The notes below the pieces were generated by a model. That model worked only from the letters and a program-made list of their open reading frames with translations, had not been told where the DNA came from and made no database searches. Shown here piece after piece: positions 869 through 29,140 of a stretch of DNA of 39,220 bases. The stretch covers positions 1 through 39,220 of the forward strand of contig JACRJN010000100.1 in the NCBI GenBank assembly GCA_016235675.1. The letters run 5' to 3'. Each line of letters opens with the position of its first letter. Within the stretch, counting starts at the first letter, position 1. This stretch comes from Candidatus Schekmanbacteria bacterium. Its GTDB lineage: Bacteria > SZUA-182. A program made the translations under genes and the position numbers.

Positions 869-3547
869 ATGGCCAAGCAAACCTTGGAAAAGGTTTATGA
901 CCCGCAGGCTTGCGAGAAGCGCTGGTACGAGTTTTGGGAGCAGCAGGGGGTTTTCCGGGCTGCCATGAATTCCGGCAAGCCGTCTTATTCGATCGTTATC
1001 CCGCCGCCGAACGTTACCGGCTCATTACATATCGGACACGCCTTGAATAACACCTTGCAGGACATTATGGTGCGCCATAAACGGATGCAGGGCTACAATA
1101 CCCTGTGGATTTTCGGCACCGATCACGCCGGAATCGCCACTCAGAACGTGGTGGAACGGCAGTTGGCCGCACAAGGCTTGAACCGTCAGCAGTTGGGCCG
1201 GGAGGATTTCATCCGCCGGGTTTGGGAATGGCGCAAAGAATCCGGCAACATCATCACCAAGCAATTAAAGCTGTTGGGCGCTTCCTGCGATTGGGAGCGG
1301 GAACGCTTTACCATGGACGAGGGGCTATCCCGCGCGGTACGGCAGGTTTTCGCCCGGCTCTATCAGGAAGGCTTGATCTACCGCGGCAACTATATTGTCA
1401 ACTGGTGCCCGCGTTGCGCTACCGCCTTATCTGACCTTGAGGTGGAGTTTGAGGAACGAAACGGCCATTTATATCATATCCGCTATCCCTTAATCATCGC
1501 TGGTGCGGAAAGCCAGGAATATTTGATCGTGGCCACCACCCGCCCGGAGACCATGCTGGGCGATACCGCCGTCGCCGTCAATCCCGATGACGAGCGTTAC
1601 AATAAATGGATCGGGCAAAAAGTATTGCTCCCCTTATGTCAACGGGAAATACCAATCATCGGCGACAGTTACGTTGATCCGGCCTTCGGCACCGGCTGCC
1701 TGAAAGTCACTCCGGCGCATGACGCCAATGATTTTGAGATCGGCAAGCGTTATCAGTTGCCGCAGGTGGTGGTCATGAATATCGACGCCACCATGAATAA
1801 AGAAGCCGGGGTTTATCAGGGTTTGACCCGTGAGGAATGCCGCAAAAAAGTGAGCCATGACTTAGAACAGGGCGGCTATCTGGAAAAGATTGAGGATTAT
1901 CGCCATGCGGTGGGGCATTGTTACCGCTGCAAGACGGTAATCGAGCCGACTGTATCACAGCAGTGGTTTTTGCGCATGAAAGACTTGGCACAGCCCGCCA
2001 TAGATGCAGTACGGGAGAAAAAAGTTCAATTAATACCAAGTCATTGGGAAGCCACCTACTTTGATTGGATGCTGAACATCCGCGACTGGTGCATTTCCCG
2101 CCAAATCTGGTGGGGGCATCGGATTCCGGCCTGGTACTGCAAGGATTGCGGACATATCAACGTCCACCTGGAAGATGTTACCGCCTGTCAAAAATGCGCA
2201 GGTAAAAACCTGGATGCGGAAACCGATGTGCTGGACACCTGGTTTAGCTCGGCGCTCTGGCCGTTTTCAACCATGGGCTGGCCGGACAAAACCAAAGAGA
2301 TGGAGTTTTTTTACCCCACCTCGCTTTTAGTGACCAGTTTCGATATTTTATTTTTCTGGGTGGCGCGCATGATTATGCTGGGGCTGAAGTTCAGGGGACA
2401 GGTTCCCTTCCATCAGGTCTACATTCACGCCCTGGTGCGGGATGCGGAAGGCCGCAAGATGAGTAAATCCAAGGGCAACGTGGTTGACCCTCTGACCAAG
2501 ATGGAAGAGTACGGCACCGACGCCCTGCGCTTTACCCTGACCTCGTTGACCGCCCAAGGCCGCGACATTTGCCTGGATGAGAAACGCATCGAAGGTTACC
2601 GCAATTTCATGAACAAAATTTGGAACGCGGCCCGTTTCAGCCTGCTGAATCTGGAGGATTTCTCCTGTCAGGACATGGCGAATAACGCTCTGGAATTTAC
2701 TTTGGCCGATGTCTGGATTTTGAGTGCCTTGCAGCGTTTGATTGCCGATGCGGACAGCGCTTTGGCGGAATATCGCTTCAACGATTATGCGGGCGCCTTA
2801 TATCATTTCTTCTGGCATGAATTCTGCGACTGGTATCTGGAAATGATTAAGTTGAGATTAAACGACCCGCAAGCCACCAAGATACAACGCTACAGCACGC
2901 AATTAACCCTGGTGACGGTTCTGGAACAATGCCTGTGCCTGTTGCATCCGATCGTTCCCTTTATCAGCGAGGAAATCTGGCAGCAGTTGCCCAGGAAAAA
3001 CGGCCATGTTGCAAGCATAATGATTACCCCTTGGCCGAAATTCGAGGAAAGGTTGATAAATAAGGAAGCGGAAGCCAGGATCGACACCATCAAAGAGGTG
3101 GTGGGTGCTATCCGCAACTTACGGGCGGAGCTTAATCTTTCACCGGCGATGGTGTTGCCCAAGGTTTTGCTTTCCCTGGGAAATATTAAGGTCAGAGAGA
3201 TTTTGCGCGCTCATGAAGCCTATCTGCGCAGTTTATGCAAGGTCGGGCAGTTTGAGATCGGCACAGGGCTGACCAGACCATCCGGCAGTATCAGCGCCGT
3301 CGACCAATATGGGGAGATATTTCTGCCTCTGGCGGGTGTCATGGACATCGGGCAGGAAATCCAGCGGCTGCAAAAAGCCGTTAATCAGACCAAAGAGGAA
3401 TTGGAGAAGGTGGAAGGCAAGCTGAATAATCCCGCTTTTGTGGAAAAAGCCCCGGCGGTGGTGGTGGAAAAGGAGCAATTGCGGCGCAGCGAATTGCAGG
3501 AGAAGTTGTCCAAACTGTTGAGTAATATAGATAAAATCCGGTTGTAG
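869..3547 (+). CDS. valS: Valyl-tRNA synthetase
   Basis: Class I aminoacyl-tRNA synthetase charging tRNA-Val in the cytoplasm (EC 6.1.1.9). The 892-residue length is typical. The HIGH signature is at residues 54-57 within PPPNVTGSLHIGHALN, and KMSKS is at about 530-534. The editing (CP1) domain lies between them with the TTRPETMLGDTAVAV motif, and cysteine pairs near the GHCYRC and CKDCG segments suggest zinc-binding inserts. The C-terminal about 60 residues form the tRNA-binding coiled coil typical of ValS. The ATG at 869 is preceded by a TAGGAG-like ribosome-binding site. nadC starts 22 nt after the stop, so the two may be co-transcribed. No T-box leader is visible upstream, only a palindromic repeat. 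Confidence 0.97.
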   Translation: MAKQTLEKVYDPQACEKRWYEFWEQQGVFRAAMNSGKPSYSIVIPPPNVTGSLHIGHALNNTLQDIMVRHKRMQGYNTLWIFGTDHAGIATQNVVERQLAAQGLNRQQLGREDFIRRVWEWRKESGNIITKQLKLLGASCDWERERFTMDEGLSRAVRQVFARLYQEGLIYRGNYIVNWCPRCATALSDLEVEFEERNGHLYHIRYPLIIAGAESQEYLIVATTRPETMLGDTAVAVNPDDERYNKWIGQKVLLPLCQREIPIIGDSYVDPAFGTGCLKVTPAHDANDFEIGKRYQLPQVVVMNIDATMNKEAGVYQGLTREECRKKVSHDLEQGGYLEKIEDYRHAVGHCYRCKTVIEPTVSQQWFLRMKDLAQPAIDAVREKKVQLIPSHWEATYFDWMLNIRDWCISRQIWWGHRIPAWYCKDCGHINVHLEDVTACQKCAGKNLDAETDVLDTWFSSALWPFSTMGWPDKTKEMEFFYPTSLLVTSFDILFFWVARMIMLGLKFRGQVPFHQVYIHALVRDAEGRKMSKSKGNVVDPLTKMEEYGTDALRFTLTSLTAQGRDICLDEKRIEGYRNFMNKIWNAARFSLLNLEDFSCQDMANNALEFTLADVWILSALQRLIADADSALAEYRFNDYAGALYHFFWHEFCDWYLEMIKLRLNDPQATKIQRYSTQLTLVTVLEQCLCLLHPIVPFISEEIWQQLPRKNGHVASIMITPWPKFEERLINKEAEARIDTIKEVVGAIRNLRAELNLSPAMVLPKVLLSLGNIKVREILRAHEAYLRSLCKVGQFEIGTGLTRPSGSISAVDQYGEIFLPLAGVMDIGQEIQRLQKAVNQTKEELEKVEGKLNNPAFVEKAPAVVVEKEQLRRSELQEKLSKLLSNIDKIRL

Positions 3548-3569
3548 TTGTTTAACAAGGAGAAATACT

Positions 3570-4397
3570 GTGTGCAAGAACTGTATAATTGATCTGGCTT
3601 TGGTTGAGGATATAGGGAGCGGAGATATCACTACTGCGGCAATAGTTCCTGATGATTTGATTTTAAAAGCTGAATTACAGGCCAAAGAGGACCTGGTTTT
3701 GGCCGGATTGGGAGTGGTCAAGCAGGTTTTTGAACATTTCGACCCCCAAATTACCCTGGAAAGTTTACACACAGACGGCAATACGGTATATAAGGGGGAA
3801 GTCATTGCCCGGATTACCGGCAAAGCCAACGCCATCTTAACCGGAGAACGGACGGCGCTTAATTTCCTCCAGCATTTATCCGGAATTGCCAGCGCGACTT
3901 CATTATATGTCAAATTGCTTGAACCGTATAAGGCTAAGTTGATCGATACCCGCAAAACCACCCCCGGTATGCGTACTTTTGAAAAATACGCCGTTCGCTG
4001 CGGCGGCGGCCAGAATCACCGGCTGGGGCTGTTTGGCGGCATAATGATTAAAGATAACCACATAGCGGCGGCAGGAAGTATCACCGAAGCGGCAAAACGG
4101 GCGCGAAAAAATGCCCCTCCGGTTCTGAAAATCGAAGTGGAAACAACCACCCTGGAAGAAGTAAAGGAAGCCATAGCCGTCGAGGCCGATATTATCATGC
4201 TGGACAACATGGATGTGGAAACTATCGCCCAGGCCGTAAAGTTAATAAACGGGCAGGCGATGACAGAAGCCTCAGGCGATGTAAATTTGAGCAACATCGA
4301 AGCGGTTGCCCAAACCGGAGTGGATTATATCTCCGTCGGACGCATTACCCATTCGGCCAAGTCGGTGGATATAAGTTTGGAAGTAGTGCCTTCTTAA
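3570..4397 (+). CDS. nadC: Nicotinate-nucleotide pyrophosphorylase (carboxylating)
   Basis: Quinolinate phosphoribosyltransferase of NAD biosynthesis: quinolinate + PRPP gives nicotinate mononucleotide + CO2 + PPi (EC 2.4.2.19). The 275 residues match the usual length. Visible signatures are the substrate-binding DTRKTTPGMR (126-135), GGQNHRLGL (146-154), IKDNH (160-164) and the C-terminal VDYISVGRITHSA. The start is GTG at 3570, supported by AAGGAG seven bases upstream; no ATG fits as well. It follows valS by 22 nt. No nadA or nadB is present in the window, so this is not a complete NAD cluster. Confidence 0.96.
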   Translation: MCKNCIIDLALVEDIGSGDITTAAIVPDDLILKAELQAKEDLVLAGLGVVKQVFEHFDPQITLESLHTDGNTVYKGEVIARITGKANAILTGERTALNFLQHLSGIASATSLYVKLLEPYKAKLIDTRKTTPGMRTFEKYAVRCGGGQNHRLGLFGGIMIKDNHIAAAGSITEAAKRARKNAPPVLKIEVETTTLEEVKEAIAVEADIIMLDNMDVETIAQAVKLINGQAMTEASGDVNLSNIEAVAQTGVDYISVGRITHSAKSVDISLEVVPS

Positions 4398-4410
4398 AAA
4401 ACCGTTATCG

Positions 4411-4472
4411 GTTGGTAGCACAGGCATCTTACCTGTGTCCGCTCGCAGGCTGGAAGCCTGCGCTACCAACCG
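4411..4472. repeat. Cruciform repeat, family B (ACAGGC...GCCTGT type)
   Basis: The outer arms GGTTGGTAGC and GCTACCAACC are perfect inverted repeats. Inside are two hairpins, ACAGGCATCTTACCTGT and GCAGGCTGGAAGCCTGC. It sits in the 98-nt gap between nadC and lptF. An open frame runs through it into lptF, but the amino acids it would encode are only repeat sequence. Confidence 0.85.
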
Positions 4473-4495
4473 CCAACCGGCAACCGACAACTAAT

Positions 4496-5692
4496 ATGAA
4501 AATCATACATCGCTACATCTTCAAAGAACTGATGACGCCTTTCGTCTTGAGCCTGGCCGCCTTTACCTTTGTAATCCTGATCAATAAAATTATCCGGCTT
4601 ACTGAATTGATTATCAACAAAGGGGTCGGCTTTTGGACGGCTATCGTTTTATTCAGTTACATCCTGCCCGCTTTTCTGGTACTGGCTATCCCCTGTACCG
4701 TGTTGATTGCTACTCAAGTTGCCTTCGGGCGCCTTTCCAGCGATCAGGAGCTTACCGCCATGTACGCGGGCGGAATCAGTTTTTACCAGTTTTTCCCCTC
4801 CCTGTTATCCTTTTCAACTTTAGCCTGCGGATTAAGCCTGTGGCTGATGGTCTATGCCGTGCCTTACGCCAACCGTGCCTTCAACCGGATGCTTTACCAA
4901 ATCGGCAGTCAGATTGTGCAGGTCGGCTCAGCCCTGGAAATTAAAGAGCGGGTGTTTCTGGACACCTTTCCCGATATGGTGGTTTATATCGACAAGATTC
5001 AGGGTTCCGCGGAAAATCTGGAAGGGGTTTTAATCAGCAATTATCATAAAACCGAAAATCCGCAGGTAATAACCGCTAAATCCGGCAGTATAACCAGCCG
5101 TCCCGATTCTATGAAGGTAATTATTAATTTGCAGAATGGCAGTATTCATAACTATTTCACAGAAAAGCGCTACCGGAAAATTGATTTCGAAAGTTACGAA
5201 GTGCAACTGGATTTGCGCAAAATGCTGCCAGAAGCCGAAAATAAGAGGCAGGAAAAAGAAATGACTTTATCCGAATTAAGGCAAAGCATCAAAAACGGCA
5301 GGAAAAAGCGATTAGCCGTTGCTCCCTATGAAGTCGAACTTCACAAGAGGCTTTCTCTTCCCTTCGCCTGCCTGCTTTTGGGTTTAATCGGTGCGCCTTT
5401 GGGTGGGGGGAATATGCGCAGTATCGGTAAATCGACCGGCTTTATCCTAAGCATGGGAATAATTTTTATTTATTATCTGCTGATGCGCTTTGGGGAAGGG
5501 TTGGGAGAAAGCGGAGCGTTTCCGGTTTTGCCGGCTGTTTGGCTGCCCAATTTAATATTATTGGTTTTTGGTATTTACCTGGTTCGCAAAGCCCAGCAAC
5601 AATCCCCCATCAAAGCGCTGGAATGGATGTCCGATGTGAATGAGGCGGCACGCTCTGTTTTTAAAAAGTGGACGAAAAAATTGGGGGTATAG
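4496..5692 (+). CDS. lptF: LPS export permease, LptF-type (YjgP/YjgQ family)
   Basis: Inner-membrane permease of the LptB2FG transporter that extracts lipopolysaccharide and passes it to LptC. The protein has 398 residues. The N-terminus MKIIHRYIFKELMTPF is a family hallmark, followed by membrane segments at about 12-32, 47-72 and 95-120. A periplasmic beta-jellyroll region (about 130-270) and three C-terminal membrane segments follow, including GAPLGGGNMRS. The start is set at ATG 4496 because the upstream frame is a palindromic repeat. No clear Shine-Dalgarno is visible before it, which is unusual. The N-terminal pattern is closer to LptF than to LptG. Its partner lptG lies 1.9 kb downstream, beyond rmuC. 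Confidence 0.88.
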   Translation: MKIIHRYIFKELMTPFVLSLAAFTFVILINKIIRLTELIINKGVGFWTAIVLFSYILPAFLVLAIPCTVLIATQVAFGRLSSDQELTAMYAGGISFYQFFPSLLSFSTLACGLSLWLMVYAVPYANRAFNRMLYQIGSQIVQVGSALEIKERVFLDTFPDMVVYIDKIQGSAENLEGVLISNYHKTENPQVITAKSGSITSRPDSMKVIINLQNGSIHNYFTEKRYRKIDFESYEVQLDLRKMLPEAENKRQEKEMTLSELRQSIKNGRKKRLAVAPYEVELHKRLSLPFACLLLGLIGAPLGGGNMRSIGKSTGFILSMGIIFIYYLLMRFGEGLGESGAFPVLPAVWLPNLILLVFGIYLVRKAQQQSPIKALEWMSDVNEAARSVFKKWTKKLGV

Positions 5693-7397: not shown

Positions 7398-7482
7398 TGT
7401 CATTGCGAGGCAGCCTTATCTCCGAAGCAATCTCGGAAGTGCCCAGTAGAATCGAGATTGCTTCGCTCCGCTCGCAATGACA
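7398..7482. repeat. Palindromic repeat, family D (TGTCATTGCGAG type)
   Basis: TGTCATTGCGAG at the left and CTCGCAATGACA at the right are perfect inverted ends of an 85-bp unit with internal GAAGCAATCTC and GAGATTGCTTC arms. Standalone relatives lie at 13393-13476 and 25017-25098, and the same core is nested within the 159-bp J element. Confidence 0.9.
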
Positions 7483-7515
7483 GGTTTGTATACCTTTTTA
7501 TGAAACGTTATAGTT

Positions 7516-10253: not shown

Positions 10254-10393
10254 GGTAACGTTCTCAATCAAAGACCCGGAGCGTCATTGCGAGCTTTAGC
10301 GAAGCAATCTCCATGCGTGCGTATGAGATTGCTTCGGTGGTAAGGCTGCATCGCTTTTGACATTTTTCAGCCGGAACAAATTTATTGCTCAGG
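10254..10393 (+). mobile_element. J element copy 1 (MITE-like, right end missing)
   Basis: About 140 bp matching the two complete 159-bp J elements in this window, from GGTAACGTTCTCAA to TTTATTGCTCAGG. The last about 20 bp, including the right inverted end, are absent, and no target duplication is seen. A family D palindrome is nested inside. The truncation point meets the ribosome-binding site of the following gene. Confidence 0.8.
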
Positions 10394-10405
10394 GGAGGGT
10401 TGATT

Positions 10406-11548
10406 ATGAAGTTAAGAACAGGGATTCTGGGGATTTGCTGTGTTTTTTCCGTTAATTATGCATCGGCTGCGGTTCTGAATGTACCCCAAAACTATAAAAG
10501 CATCCAGACTGCTTTGGAAACCGCCGATGACGGCGATAAAATTCTGGTGGCCGCAGGCACATACAACGAGCGGATTAATTTTTACGGCAAGAAGGTTATT
10601 CTGGAATCGACAAACGGTGCGGCGGCAACTAAACTTTCCGGCGATAAAAAGGGCAGTGTGGTTACCTTCAGTTCGCGGGAGGGAACGGAGTCGGTGCTAA
10701 AAGGTTTCACCATCACTGACGGCTTGGCGGAAACGGGAGGCGGGATTTATTGCCAGGAAGCTTCACCCACCATTAAGGATTGTATTATCAGCGGAAATTC
10801 CGCGACCTGGGGCGGCGGCATCTATTGTTATCGGCAAAACCCCCAGATTTTAAACTGCACCATCGCCGAGAATAAAGCGGCCAAGGACGGCGGGGGGATT
10901 CTTTGCGATGAATCGTCCCCTGTCGTTAAAGATTGTGTCATCAGTAAAAATTCGGCGGGAGAATTTTTCGGCGGGGGGATTTTTTGTAATCGCGGTTCCG
11001 CCCCGCTTATATCCAAATGCAGATTTACCGATAATTCGGCTCAATTCGGAGCGGCAATCGGCAGCCAGAGCGGTTCTTTTCGCATCACCAATTCAATTCT
11101 GGCCAATAACCGCGCCGCTTTTGAAGGCGGCGGGATTTTTTGTGAAGCGACTACCTTTGTCGCGCTGCATGTGACATTCTTTTCCAATTCGGCCAAAGAA
11201 TCAGGCGGGGCGATTTCCTGCGACAAGAAGTCAGGCGGAACGGTGGTCAACAGTATTTTATGGGGGGATACCGCTCAAGGGACGGCAAATGAGATTTATC
11301 TGAAGGAAAGCGGTCTGCAAATCAGTTATTCGGCTGTCCAGGGAGGACGATCTGGAGAGGGCAATATCAGCGCCGAGCCTAAATTTATGGATTTGTTTAA
11401 AGGGGATTACCGGCTAAAGGAGGGGTCTCCTTGTATTGACAAAGGCACCGCCGCCCCGGATAAAAATTATAAACTGCCTGATGAAGATATGGCCGGACGC
11501 AAACGTCCGCAAGGCAAAGGGCCTGATATGGGAGCGTTTGAATTTTAG
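10406..11548 (+). CDS. Exported right-handed beta-helix protein
   Basis: A 380-residue secreted or surface protein. Residues 1-22 form a Sec signal peptide (positive MKLR, hydrophobic core, likely cleavage after YASA). The mature protein begins VLNVPQNYKSIQTALETADD, the usual opening of pectate-lyase-like parallel beta-helices. Repeated coils of the form GGGIYC...P.I.(D/N)C.I..N.A follow from about residue 100 to 310, then a C-terminal GSPCIDKGT and MGAFEF tail typical of choice-of-anchor-type beta-helix proteins. No catalytic residues are identified, so binding to or modification of polysaccharide is only a possibility. The ATG at 10406 was chosen because AGGGGAGGG lies six bases upstream; an in-frame TTG at 10385 lies inside the repeat. 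Confidence 0.85.
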   Translation: MKLRTGILGICCVFSVNYASAAVLNVPQNYKSIQTALETADDGDKILVAAGTYNERINFYGKKVILESTNGAAATKLSGDKKGSVVTFSSREGTESVLKGFTITDGLAETGGGIYCQEASPTIKDCIISGNSATWGGGIYCYRQNPQILNCTIAENKAAKDGGGILCDESSPVVKDCVISKNSAGEFFGGGIFCNRGSAPLISKCRFTDNSAQFGAAIGSQSGSFRITNSILANNRAAFEGGGIFCEATTFVALHVTFFSNSAKESGGAISCDKKSGGTVVNSILWGDTAQGTANEIYLKESGLQISYSAVQGGRSGEGNISAEPKFMDLFKGDYRLKEGSPCIDKGTAAPDKNYKLPDEDMAGRKRPQGKGPDMGAFEF

Positions 11549-13331: not shown

Positions 13332-13368
13332 AAATTGTTTATATGCTTACCCGATCTAGTAGAGCGTT

Positions 13369-13500
13369 CCATAAATAATGATGCACAAAACCTGTCATTG
13401 CGAGCGGAGCGAAGCAATCCCGATTTTATTGTAGCGTCTGAGATTGCTTCGGCGGTAAGGCTGCCTCGCAATGACAGTAAACGCGGCATATTATTTATGG
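13369..13500. repeat. Family D palindrome within outer arms
   Basis: TGTCATTGCGAG (from 13393) and CTCGCAATGACA (to 13476) bound the core. The core is framed by a perfect 11-bp outer inverted repeat, CCATAAATAAT (13369-13379) and ATTATTTATGG (13490-13500). The right outer arm contains the probable ATG of the next gene. Confidence 0.85.
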
Positions 13501-14798
13501 ACCATTACACTAGCTATATTCTATATTTGCTTCCGCTATTTTGCCTGCTCCTTACTCCCAACAACATCAACGCCCAACCCAACAAAACCAAAATACTGCT
13601 AATCGGGATCGACGCCGCCGATTGGGAGATGGTCAGACCGATGGCGGCCAACGGGGAATTGCCTAATCTGGCCGGACTGATTAAAAGCGGGACATCGGCA
13701 AAAATCCATTCCTACAACGGCATAAGTCCGGCTTACTGGACAAGCGTGGCCACCGGGGTAATGCCGAAAAAACATGGGATTTGGAATTTTACCGTCAAAG
13801 ACCCAGGCACCGGCGAAGATATACCTTATACCAGCAATATGCGCCGGACTAAGGCTTTTTGGAATATCCTCAGCGAACAAAAGATTAACGTCGGGGTGGT
13901 GGGCTGGTATATCACCTGGCCGGTGGAGCAGGTTAACGGCTTTATGGTATCGTCATATTATGCCCGCCAGGGGCTGGAAACCTCCAAAGGGCAGCAGCCT
14001 TCCACCAGGGGTACTTTCTATCCGACTGCCCCCCAAATGGTTTATCCGGAAAATTTAAATGACGCTTTAGGGCAAATCAGTTTGAAGGCGCAGGAAAATT
14101 GTAAGGGGAAAATCCGGGAAATCTTCCCTCCGGCGGTCTTGCAAAATCCCTATTATCTGAGAATAACCAAAGAGGATCGCTATCGCAGTGGGATCGGAAT
14201 CCGGGCGGTAAAATGGGCGCTTATGGCTGATGAGATTTACAAAGAAATCGGGGTGGATTTATACCGGAAGTTTAAACCGCAGGTGTTTGCCGTCTATTTA
14301 GGCGGCCTCGATACCGTCGGACATGTCTTTACTCATTTCCGGAAGAAAATACATAACGAGATGCTGGGGATTTTCGGAAATCCGCACAAAAATTATTATA
14401 AATATATCGACGAAGCCATCGGGGAAATCATCCGGGAGGCGGATAAAGATACCGTCATTATTGTTCTCTCCGATCACGGCCTGATGCGGCGCTTTCACAC
14501 CAATAACGGGATCTTTATAATCTCCGGCCCCAATATCAAAAAGAATTTCCGCTCAAGCGAGCCGGTCAACCTCACCGATATTTTCCCGACTATGCTTTAT
14601 CTGCTGAATATGCCGCAGGCAAAAGATCTGGACGGTGCGGTTTATCAGGAGGCATTCCTGGAAAGTTACCTGAAGGGGCATAAGCGGTCTTACATCCAAT
14701 CTTACGGGCCGAGGGCAATTAGTGTTCCCGATCCGATCCGTTCCCGCTTTGATGATGAGATTCGCCAGCGGTTGAAGGCGTTGGGATATTTGAATTGA
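13497..14798 (+). CDS. Exported phosphodiesterase/nucleotide pyrophosphatase-like protein
   Basis: A 433-residue member of the alkaline phosphatase superfamily, type I phosphodiesterase branch. Visible metal or catalytic positions are the Asp of KILLIGIDAADWE, the Thr/Ser region of SPAYWTSVATG (nucleophile), the Asp and His of GGLDTVGHV, the Asp-His of VLSDHGL, and His of FHTNNG. NLTDIFPTMLYLL is a family signature. Residues 1-26 look like a signal peptide ending NINA. The start is ATG 13497: the open frame extending further upstream only translates a family D repeat. No good Shine-Dalgarno is visible. The substrate is unknown; relatives act on phosphodiesters, nucleotides or lipid-linked groups. 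Confidence 0.85.
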   Translation: MDHYTSYILYLLPLFCLLLTPNNINAQPNKTKILLIGIDAADWEMVRPMAANGELPNLAGLIKSGTSAKIHSYNGISPAYWTSVATGVMPKKHGIWNFTVKDPGTGEDIPYTSNMRRTKAFWNILSEQKINVGVVGWYITWPVEQVNGFMVSSYYARQGLETSKGQQPSTRGTFYPTAPQMVYPENLNDALGQISLKAQENCKGKIREIFPPAVLQNPYYLRITKEDRYRSGIGIRAVKWALMADEIYKEIGVDLYRKFKPQVFAVYLGGLDTVGHVFTHFRKKIHNEMLGIFGNPHKNYYKYIDEAIGEIIREADKDTVIIVLSDHGLMRRFHTNNGIFIISGPNIKKNFRSSEPVNLTDIFPTMLYLLNMPQAKDLDGAVYQEAFLESYLKGHKRSYIQSYGPRAISVPDPIRSRFDDEIRQRLKALGYLN

Positions 14799-23138: not shown

Positions 23139-23297
23139 GGTAGCGTAGAAATGCAGAGACCTGAGCAACAAATTTGTTTCGGCTGAAAAATGTCATAGCT
23201 CAGCAGCCTTATCGCCGAAGCAATCTCTACGCACGCATGGAGATTGCGTAGCTAAAGCTCGCAATGACGCTTCGGGTCTCCTGTTGAGAACGCTATC
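23139..23297 (-). mobile_element. J element copy 2, complete, 159 bp, with 8-bp target duplication
   Basis: The ends GGTAGCG and CGCTATC are inverted repeats. AAGGATTT occurs immediately before (23131-23138) and after (23298-23305), a perfect 8-bp direct repeat as left by transposition. It carries no open frame that could be a transposase. It is inserted at the stop codon of the membrane-protein gene at 23296-24933. Confidence 0.88.
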
Positions 23298-24973: not shown

Positions 24974-25002
24974 AAAATTGGGTGGGCTGTGCCCCAATGT
25001 TG

Positions 25003-25135
25003 TTGACTTAAGGAATTGTCATTGCGAGGCAGTTTTATCGCCGAAGCAATCTCCAGCCGCTCGGAACTAGAGATTGCTTCGCTTCGCTCGCAATGACAGA
25101 TTACGGAAAACCCTTTCCATTATTCCTTAAGTCAA
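25003..25135. repeat. Family D palindrome within perfect outer arms
   Basis: The outer arms TTGACTTAAGGAAT (25003-25016) and ATTCCTTAAGTCAA (25122-25135) are a perfect 14-bp inverted repeat. The core runs from TGTCATTGCGAG (25017) to CTCGCAATGACA (25098). It occupies most of the gap between the two GT-C-like genes. Confidence 0.9.
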
Positions 25136-25149
25136 CAGCATTCCCCACC

Positions 25150-28644: not shown

Positions 28645-29039
28645 TCAACAATTTATTGTAGGAGCACCTGGTTTGGCGCCCGGTTTCTTTTTCCCGACGG
28701 CAGGCGTAGTGGCTTTTATGGGCACTTTGGAGGAAGGGGTTGAAGAGCCAAACGCACCTTCTCCCTGCTTACGTTCCTGAACATGCAGCTTAGCCTTGAG
28801 ACGACTAACCTCTTCTGTGAGTTCATCTATCTTGCGCTGCTTATCAAAACATTGGTAGCGTTCTCAACAGGAGACCCGTAGCGTCATTGCGAGCGGAGCG
28901 AAGCAATCTCCATGCGTGCGTATGAGATTGCTTCGGCGATAAGGCTGCTGAGCTATGACATTTTTCAGCCGGTACAAATTTATTGCTCAGGTCTTTGTAT
29001 TTCTACGCTACCAAAACATTCGGAACAATTATTTATCAT
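28645..29039 (-). pseudogene. N-terminal remnant of IS66-like transposase, split by a MITE-like insertion
   Basis: Reading the minus strand from ATG 29039 gives MINNCSECF up to the J element. If the 159-bp element and one 8-bp duplicate are removed, the frame continues DKQRKIDELTEEVSRLKAKL and then GEGAFGSSTPSSKVP, KKKPGAKPGA and a stop at 28645. A CxxCF opening, a leucine-heptad helix and a (P/A)FGSSTPSSK motif are familiar from the N-terminal parts of IS66-like transposases. The remaining about 400 residues are missing, so this is a decayed fragment. The family call rests on motif memory only. Confidence 0.75.
28854..29012 (+). mobile_element. J element copy 3, complete, 159 bp, with 8-bp target duplication
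   Basis: The ends GGTAGCG (28854-28860) and CGCTACC (29006-29012) are perfect inverted repeats. AAAACATT is duplicated at 28846-28853 and 29013-29020. A family D palindrome (GTCATTGCGAG to GCTATGACA) is nested inside. There is no coding capacity, so it is a non-autonomous element; the driving transposase is not in the window. Confidence 0.9.
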
Positions 29040-29140
29040 GCCCTTATTTATAACAGATTGAATTCTATAAATCAACTATAATATACAACTATTAATACTC
29101 TTTTCCACCCTTTCACTGAAGGGTTACAAATTTTTACGTC

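What the first reader, a model, noticed from the sequence alone, without database searches (positions are those of the whole stretch)
28645..29039. 159-bp MITE-like element with perfect 8-bp duplication; removing it restores a transposase reading frame
J copy 3 is bounded by GGTAGCG/CGCTACC and flanked on both sides by AAAACATT. Deleting the element plus one AAAACATT rejoins two frames into an IS66-like N-terminus (CSECFDKQRKIDEL... FGSSTPSSK). This is direct evidence of transposition of a non-autonomous element into an older mobile element. A family D palindrome, common elsewhere as a standalone repeat, is nested inside J, so J may be a D-type repeat captured by mobile ends.
Basis: partly seen in the sequence, partly recalled or inferred. 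Interest (0 to 1): 0.75.

Follow-up and report, generated by a model that had tools for sequence, protein, structure and literature searches.

The report
ISH6-type miniature transposons with shared hairpins
A 159-base non-coding DNA element that jumped into an old transposase gene belongs to a genome-wide family of well over 60 miniature transposons whose ends match the ISH6 kind of insertion sequence, and the hairpin it carries also turns up inside several other kinds of miniature element in the same genome.

Summary
Element 28854-29012 (159 bp) is flanked by AAAACATT on both sides. Joining the flanks with one AAAACATT copy gives a site that aligns gap-free at the junction to an intact IS66 transposase gene elsewhere in the same genome, a paralogous empty site. 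The element is a MITE. The genome holds 98 "left" and 54 "right" ends (0 in controls). Of 62 paired copies in fetched DNA, 37 have perfect 8-bp duplications (1.4 expected), with consensus AAnnnnTT.

A 257-Gb scan with the end pattern found at least 77 hits (about 4 expected), mostly beside the same AAnnnnTT sites. Where sequence allows, the end abuts an ISH6-like (Mutator-superfamily) transposase. Both MITE ends match the corresponding IS end at 21 of 24 positions. ISH6 is published with 8-bp duplications and target AANATNTT. No such transposase was found in this draft genome, but comparable drafts lose multicopy ISs.

The inner "D" hairpin is shared with at least three other end frameworks here, and the same ISH6-type ends also carry a different hairpin. 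Cores and ends are thus mixed and matched. How cores are exchanged is not shown.

The parts
28846..28853 (.). left copy of the 8-bp target duplication AAAACATT
28854..29012 (+). 159-bp MITE 'J' (no coding capacity seen), ISH6-type ends
28854..28877 (+). left terminal repeat GGTAGCGTTCTCAACAGGAGACCC (T-type; consensus 21/24 to the T-type end of ISH6-like ISs, which abuts the 3' end of their transposase gene)
28989..29012 (-). right terminal repeat GGTAGCGTAGAAATACAAAGACCT (A-type; consensus 21/24 to the A-type end of ISH6-like ISs)
28883..28959 (+). 'D' hairpin core GTCATTGCGAGC...GAGCTATGAC, also found inside other end frameworks
29013..29020 (.). right copy of the 8-bp target duplication AAAACATT
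28645..29039 (-). IS66 transposase gene remnant (N-terminal part), interrupted by the MITE
   Evidence: 83.6% to intact copy L174; detectable DNA homology 28667-29131
23139..23297 (-). second complete J copy, duplication AAGGATTT on both sides
10254..10393 (+). third J copy, right end missing

Best explanation
J is a non-autonomous miniature element (MITE) moved in trans by a transposase of the ISH6 type (prokaryotic Mutator-like, p-MULT 2). The transposase binds the two unlike 23-24-bp ends, cuts the element out or copies it, and joins it to an AAnnnnTT site with an 8-bp stagger, leaving the 8-bp duplication. Here one copy landed in a decayed IS66 transposase gene and split its frame. Shown: the insertion, the duplication, the empty site, the family and its target consensus, and the match of both ends to ISs that encode an ISH6-like transposase. 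Inferred: that this transposase, present now or in the past in this lineage, did the moving. The core between the ends is an exchangeable REP-like hairpin, most often D.
For: 8-bp duplication and paralogous empty sites. 37 of 62 paired copies with perfect duplications, 5 more by a looser end search. Duplication consensus AAnnnnTT, with exceptions that repeat on both sides (AAAAAACT, AGTTAATT, AAAAATTC), so the duplication really is 8 bp. End-pattern scan of 257 Gb: at least 77 stretches, about 4 expected, 64 of 77 flanked by AAnnnnTT. ISH6-like transposase C-terminus abuts the T-type end in many of these loci; a 1,524-bp IS with a 406-aa transposase in L238; NCBIfam transpos_ISH6 at 185.6 and 156.1 bits over nearly the full length. 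MITE-T/IS-T 21/24 and MITE-A/IS-A 21/24, against 16-17/24 for crossed pairs. Published ISH6 features: target AANATNTT (PMC3942029); ISH6 1,456 bp with 8-bp duplication (PMC10264941). TSD-bounded elements without a transposase and with these ends in other genomes: L187 219 bp, L197 168 bp, L236 144 bp, all with perfect 8-bp duplications.
Against: No ISH6-like transposase found in this genome by protein or by family model, though the assembly is 89.65% complete in 190 contigs. Genomes whose contigs break inside such ISs also return nothing (Desulfocapsa N3_15, G146). The bacterial transposases score below the curated ISH6 equivalog cut-off (185.6 against 240 bits). Similarity between MITE and IS is confined to the terminal 23-24 bp. 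The one complete IS examined (L238) does not show a perfect duplication (AAAATCTT / AATCTTTT).
Confidence: 0.88

Rival explanations
1. The element is moved by an IS66-type transposase (also 8-bp duplications), and its place in an IS66 gene is a sign of that.
For: 8-bp duplication. Two IS66 transposase matches in the genome, one an intact-length 482-aa frame.
Against: The ends match ISs that carry an ISH6-like transposase, with the same AAnnnnTT sites. The other sampled insertions lie in many kinds of site.
Confidence: 0.04
2. The mobile unit is the D hairpin; the GGTAGCG ends are a passive preferred landing site into which D inserts.
For: D occurs inside several end frameworks with closely similar boundaries and in other genomes without these ends.
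Against: The 8-bp duplications lie outside the GGTAGCG ends, not around D. The empty sites lack ends and D together. The same ends with a different hairpin (L070) also carry a perfect duplication.
Confidence: 0.04
3. The family moves by an unknown transposase of this phylum that converged on ISH6-like ends.
For: No ISH6-like transposase in the draft genome or its phylum-mates.
Against: Both unlike ends match the corresponding IS ends separately, and the target consensus is the same.
Confidence: 0.04

Closest known systems
ISH6 family insertion sequences (p-MULT 2; ISH6 of Halobacterium, ISDesp5 of uncultured Desulfobacterium; PMC3942029, PMC10264941)
   Same: 8-bp duplication; AT-rich target AAnnnnTT / AANATNTT; the bacterial ISH6-like ISs have near-identical unlike ends
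   Different: J is 159 bp, has no gene, and only the terminal 23-24 bp correspond. The bacterial transposases score below the curated ISH6 cut-off. ISDesp5 itself was not available for comparison.
Bacterial MITEs (e.g. NEMIS/Correia, ERIC, RUP, Nezha; listed in PMC3733652)
   Same: 70-300 bp, terminal inverted repeats, target duplications, high copy number, no coding capacity
   Different: ISH6-type ends. The core is a hairpin shared with MITE-like elements that have other ends.
REP / REPIN-type palindromes (GTAG- and CGTC-tagged; PMC3733652)
   Same: the D core is two inverted REP-like arms and is abundant, as REP dimers are
   Different: here the palindromes are carried inside terminal repeats with target duplications. 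No match of D to a named REP family was found.
Pack-MULEs (eukaryotic Mutator elements carrying captured fragments; mentioned in PMC3942029)
   Same: non-autonomous, Mutator-type ends around interchangeable inner sequence
   Different: what is carried here are hairpin repeats, not gene fragments. Resemblance only.

Membership tests
MITE | short (<~600 bp), no transposase gene | tested here: met
   most paired copies 119-201 bp, holding no transposase gene
MITE | terminal inverted repeats | tested here: met
   GGTAGCGT.........GAGACC at both ends
MITE | target-site duplications and many dispersed copies | tested here: met
   37 of 62 paired copies perfect, 1.4 expected; 5 further
MITE | empty sites | tested here: met
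   paralogous empty sites for J (L174) and for L032, L094, L157, L161; none in relatives because none close enough is held
ISH6-type element (mobilised by) | 8-bp duplication, AT-rich AANATNTT-like target | tested here: met
   AAnnnnTT; published features
ISH6-type element (mobilised by) | ends shared with an IS encoding an ISH6-like transposase | tested here: met
   21/24 for each end; transposase adjacent to the end
ISH6-type element (mobilised by) | transposase over the curated ISH6 cut-off (240 bits) | tested here: not met
   185.6 and 156.1 bits, near full length; hence 'ISH6-like', not filed as a strict ISH6 member
ISH6-type element (mobilised by) | autonomous partner in the same genome | tested here: inconclusive
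   none found, but drafts with the IS at contig ends also give none
ISH6-type element (mobilised by) | mobilisation by the transposase in an assay | not testable with these tools
   needs an experiment
IS66 (host of the insertion) | IS66 transposase domain / homology | tested here: met
   intact paralogue over cut-off, 139.7 bits; remnant 83.6% identical to it

The most novel reading that the evidence does not exclude
Hairpin cores are exchanged between unrelated miniature-transposon families in one genome. The D core sits inside ISH6-type ends, inside TAGTNNAACGTTYCAT-type ends (two variants), inside AATGCTGTTGACTTAAGGAAT ends and inside GGGACTTAGAAATTTC ends, while ISH6-type ends also carry a second hairpin. 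There would be a process that moves hairpins into, or swaps them between, MITE frameworks, a bacterial counterpart of Mutator-type capture.
Probability: 0.3. Interest if true: 0.72.

Novelty: new variant of a known kind. Interest (0 to 1): 0.5.

Why it matters
ISH6 has been described as a small, mostly archaeal family tied to salty habitats (PMC9208149). Here its characteristic ends and targets recur across Desulfobacterota, anammox planctomycetes, Nitrospinota, nitrifiers and others, and they power a family of miniature elements with dozens of well-marked insertions. The shared hairpin cores make a concrete case for asking how bacterial MITEs acquire their inner sequence: the same cassette in several frameworks, with duplications and empty sites to fix each event.

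Tried and rejected
Autonomous element in the own genome: the three longest end pairs (C68 1,326 bp; C155 1,408 bp; C39 2,507 bp) hold no transposase; C68 turned out to be two separate elements with other genes between, and extra ends lie inside the C155 and C39 stretches. ISH6 transposase in the own genome by protein and by NCBIfam model: only a 20.5-bit match to a different, ISKra4/ISLre2-looking gene on C78. IS66 as the mover: considered because of the 8-bp duplication, set aside once the ends matched ISH6-like ISs. A shorter duplication with TT...AA as part of the ends: rejected because rare exceptions repeat on both sides. Viral contigs: no end match. Relatives: 145 genomes match mainly the D arm, none with the ends; the 8 held phylum-mates have no ends. 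Rfam on the element: nothing. Papers on ISH6-derived MITEs: none found in the open-access library. D arm sequence in papers: the listed hits were unrelated. Terminal-repeat test around D with re-paired flanks as control: misleading because copies share ends; repeated with shuffled flanks.

Full report
WHAT IS THERE. The 159-bp element occupies 28854-29012 and is flanked by AAAACATT at 28846-28853 and 29013-29020. On the minus strand the surrounding frame is broken by it. Joining the flanks with a single AAAACATT gives one frame from the ATG at 29039 to the stop at 28645, reading MINNCSECFDKQRKIDELTEEVSRLKAKLHVQERKQGEGAFGSSTPSSK...KPGAKPGAPTINC*. This is the N-terminal part of an IS66 transposase. 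An intact-length 482-aa copy lies on contig C17 of the same genome (L174; IS66 domain 139.7 bits), and the joined site aligns to it over 298 bp at 83.6%, with the two flanks meeting at L174 353|352. So a paralogous empty site exists and the insertion is proven at base level. The host gene is only a remnant: its open frame ends after about 75 codons.

A LARGE FAMILY. The window is contig C51 of a 2.98-Mb, 190-contig draft. Two end types occur genome-wide: T-type GGTAGCGTTCTCAAYARRAGACC (98 matches) and A-type GGTAGCGTAGAAATACARAGACC (54 matches), both at up to 3 mismatches, with none in reversed-pattern controls. In the DNA I fetched, 62 copies pair two ends, most of them 119-201 bp long. Of these, 37 have perfect 8-bp duplications, against a permuted expectation of 1.4 (maximum 6 in 1,000 permutations), and 44 have at most one mismatch; a looser end search adds 5 perfect ones. 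The duplications read AA-nnnn-TT almost without exception, and rare exceptions (AAAAAACT, AGTTAATT, AAAAATTC) repeat on both sides, which fixes the length at 8. Further paralogous empty sites exist: several copies (L032, L094, L157, L161) sit in copies of another repeat whose uninterrupted version aligns across the junction at 91-99%. The two other J copies in the window are 23139-23297 (duplication AAGGATTT) and 10254-10393 (right end lost).

WHAT MOVES IT. No pair of ends in this genome encloses a transposase. I therefore scanned 257 Gb of genomes with a pattern allowing both end types. They come from Desulfocapsa, Anammoxibacter, Brocadiaceae, Syntrophaceae, Geobacter, Nitrospinota, Nitrotoga, Nitrosomonas and others; 64 of the 77 ends are flanked by AAnnnnTT. 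Many lie within about 140 bp of a contig end, as expected when a multicopy IS breaks an assembly. In 19 loci the C-terminal part of one transposase family lies next to the T-type end. The complete case is L238 (Anammoxibacter), 2974-4497: 1,524 bp with a 406-aa transposase. NCBIfam names it ISH6-like: 185.6 bits over residues 11-402 of 406, below the curated 240-bit cut-off. Consensus MITE and IS ends agree at 21 of 24 positions for T with T and for A with A, but only at 16-17 when crossed; so both ends individually correspond to those of an ISH6-like IS. Published ISH6 features agree: Mutator superfamily p-MULT 2, duplicated target AANATNTT, one bacterial example ISDesp5 (PMC3942029), and an 8-bp duplication for ISH6 of 1,456 bp (PMC10264941). 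Short TSD-bounded elements with these ends occur elsewhere too: L187, L197, L236.

LIMITS. I did not find the transposase in this genome. That is weak evidence. The same family search fails in Desulfocapsa N3_15, where the IS visibly sits at contig ends, while it works in genomes where the IS is assembled (G145, G149, G156, G158). Loss of the autonomous copy, or activity only in the past, also remains possible. Mobilisation itself is inferred.

THE CORE. Between the ends of J lies the palindrome D (28883-28959), two inverted REP-like arms. The exact arm pattern occurs 229 times in the genome. Among the first 96 D palindromes listed, 35 lie within 170 bp of a recorded J-type end (a lower bound) and 61 do not. 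Twenty of the latter were fetched: two proved to be J-type with a damaged partner (L263, L279), and nine of 23 D copies tested (those fetched plus the window's) show terminal repeats around D above the 99% level of shuffled flanks. These fall into other frameworks: TAGTNNAACGTTYCATAAA-type ends, in two variants; AATGCTGTTGACTTAAGGAAT ends; GGGACTTAGAAATTTC ends. Others show one recognisable end of the same kinds. In the same class (G003, G007), D lies between TCGTAAAAAG repeats. Conversely, ISH6-type ends also carry a different hairpin (CGTAGTCCCAGCCCTTTAGGGCTGAA...), in L070 with a perfect duplication and in L071, L149 and several single-ended copies. Ends and cores are therefore mixed and matched. 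Whether D entered each framework once, by insertion into the loop of a MITE hairpin, by recombination between MITEs, or with the help of another enzyme is not known.

VERDICT. The addition is the identity of the mover (ISH6-type, confidence 0.88) and the correction that many D copies taken as free-standing are parts of other end frameworks. The element is a new MITE family of a known kind. The shared cores are the part that could be surprising.

Noticed in passing
window 13356-13513: D hairpin inside a different terminal-repeat framework, CTAGTAGAGCGTTCCATAAATAAT...ATTATTTATGGACCATTACACTAG; further copies in L264, L269, L271, L272. The ends suggest a TA-duplicating, IS630-like MITE (not tested).
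   Followed up: partly
window 24996-25142: D hairpin between AATGCTGTTGACTTAAGGAAT inverted repeats; same framework in L265 and L278.
   Followed up: partly
window ~7399-7515: D hairpin with a one-sided ACTATAACGTTTCATAAAAAGGTATACAAACCT arm, as in L262, L267, L281.
   Followed up: partly
window 10254-10404: Truncated J copy ends directly before GGAGGGTTGATTATG, the likely ribosome-binding site and start of the gene at 10385-11548; it may have replaced the gene's upstream region.
   Followed up: no
L033 (C186) 492-650: A 159-bp J copy with perfect duplication whose D core is inverted relative to the ends, so the core can flip.
   Followed up: no
L253 (C78) 3-299: Gene fragment resembling a REP-associated (Y1) transposase, beside a gene that looks like an ISKra4/ISLre2-type transposase.
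   Followed up: no
L186 5971-, L219 2912-, L227 4919-5017, L233 403-523 (Brocadiaceae): Very short (about 100-120 bp) elements with two A-type ISH6-like ends, apparently another MITE family of this kind.
   Followed up: no
L073/L021 and L032, L094, L157, L161: A CCCCTTTGGCAAAGGGG-type repeat ('E') is a repeated landing site for J-type elements, with occupied and empty copies in one genome.
   Followed up: partly
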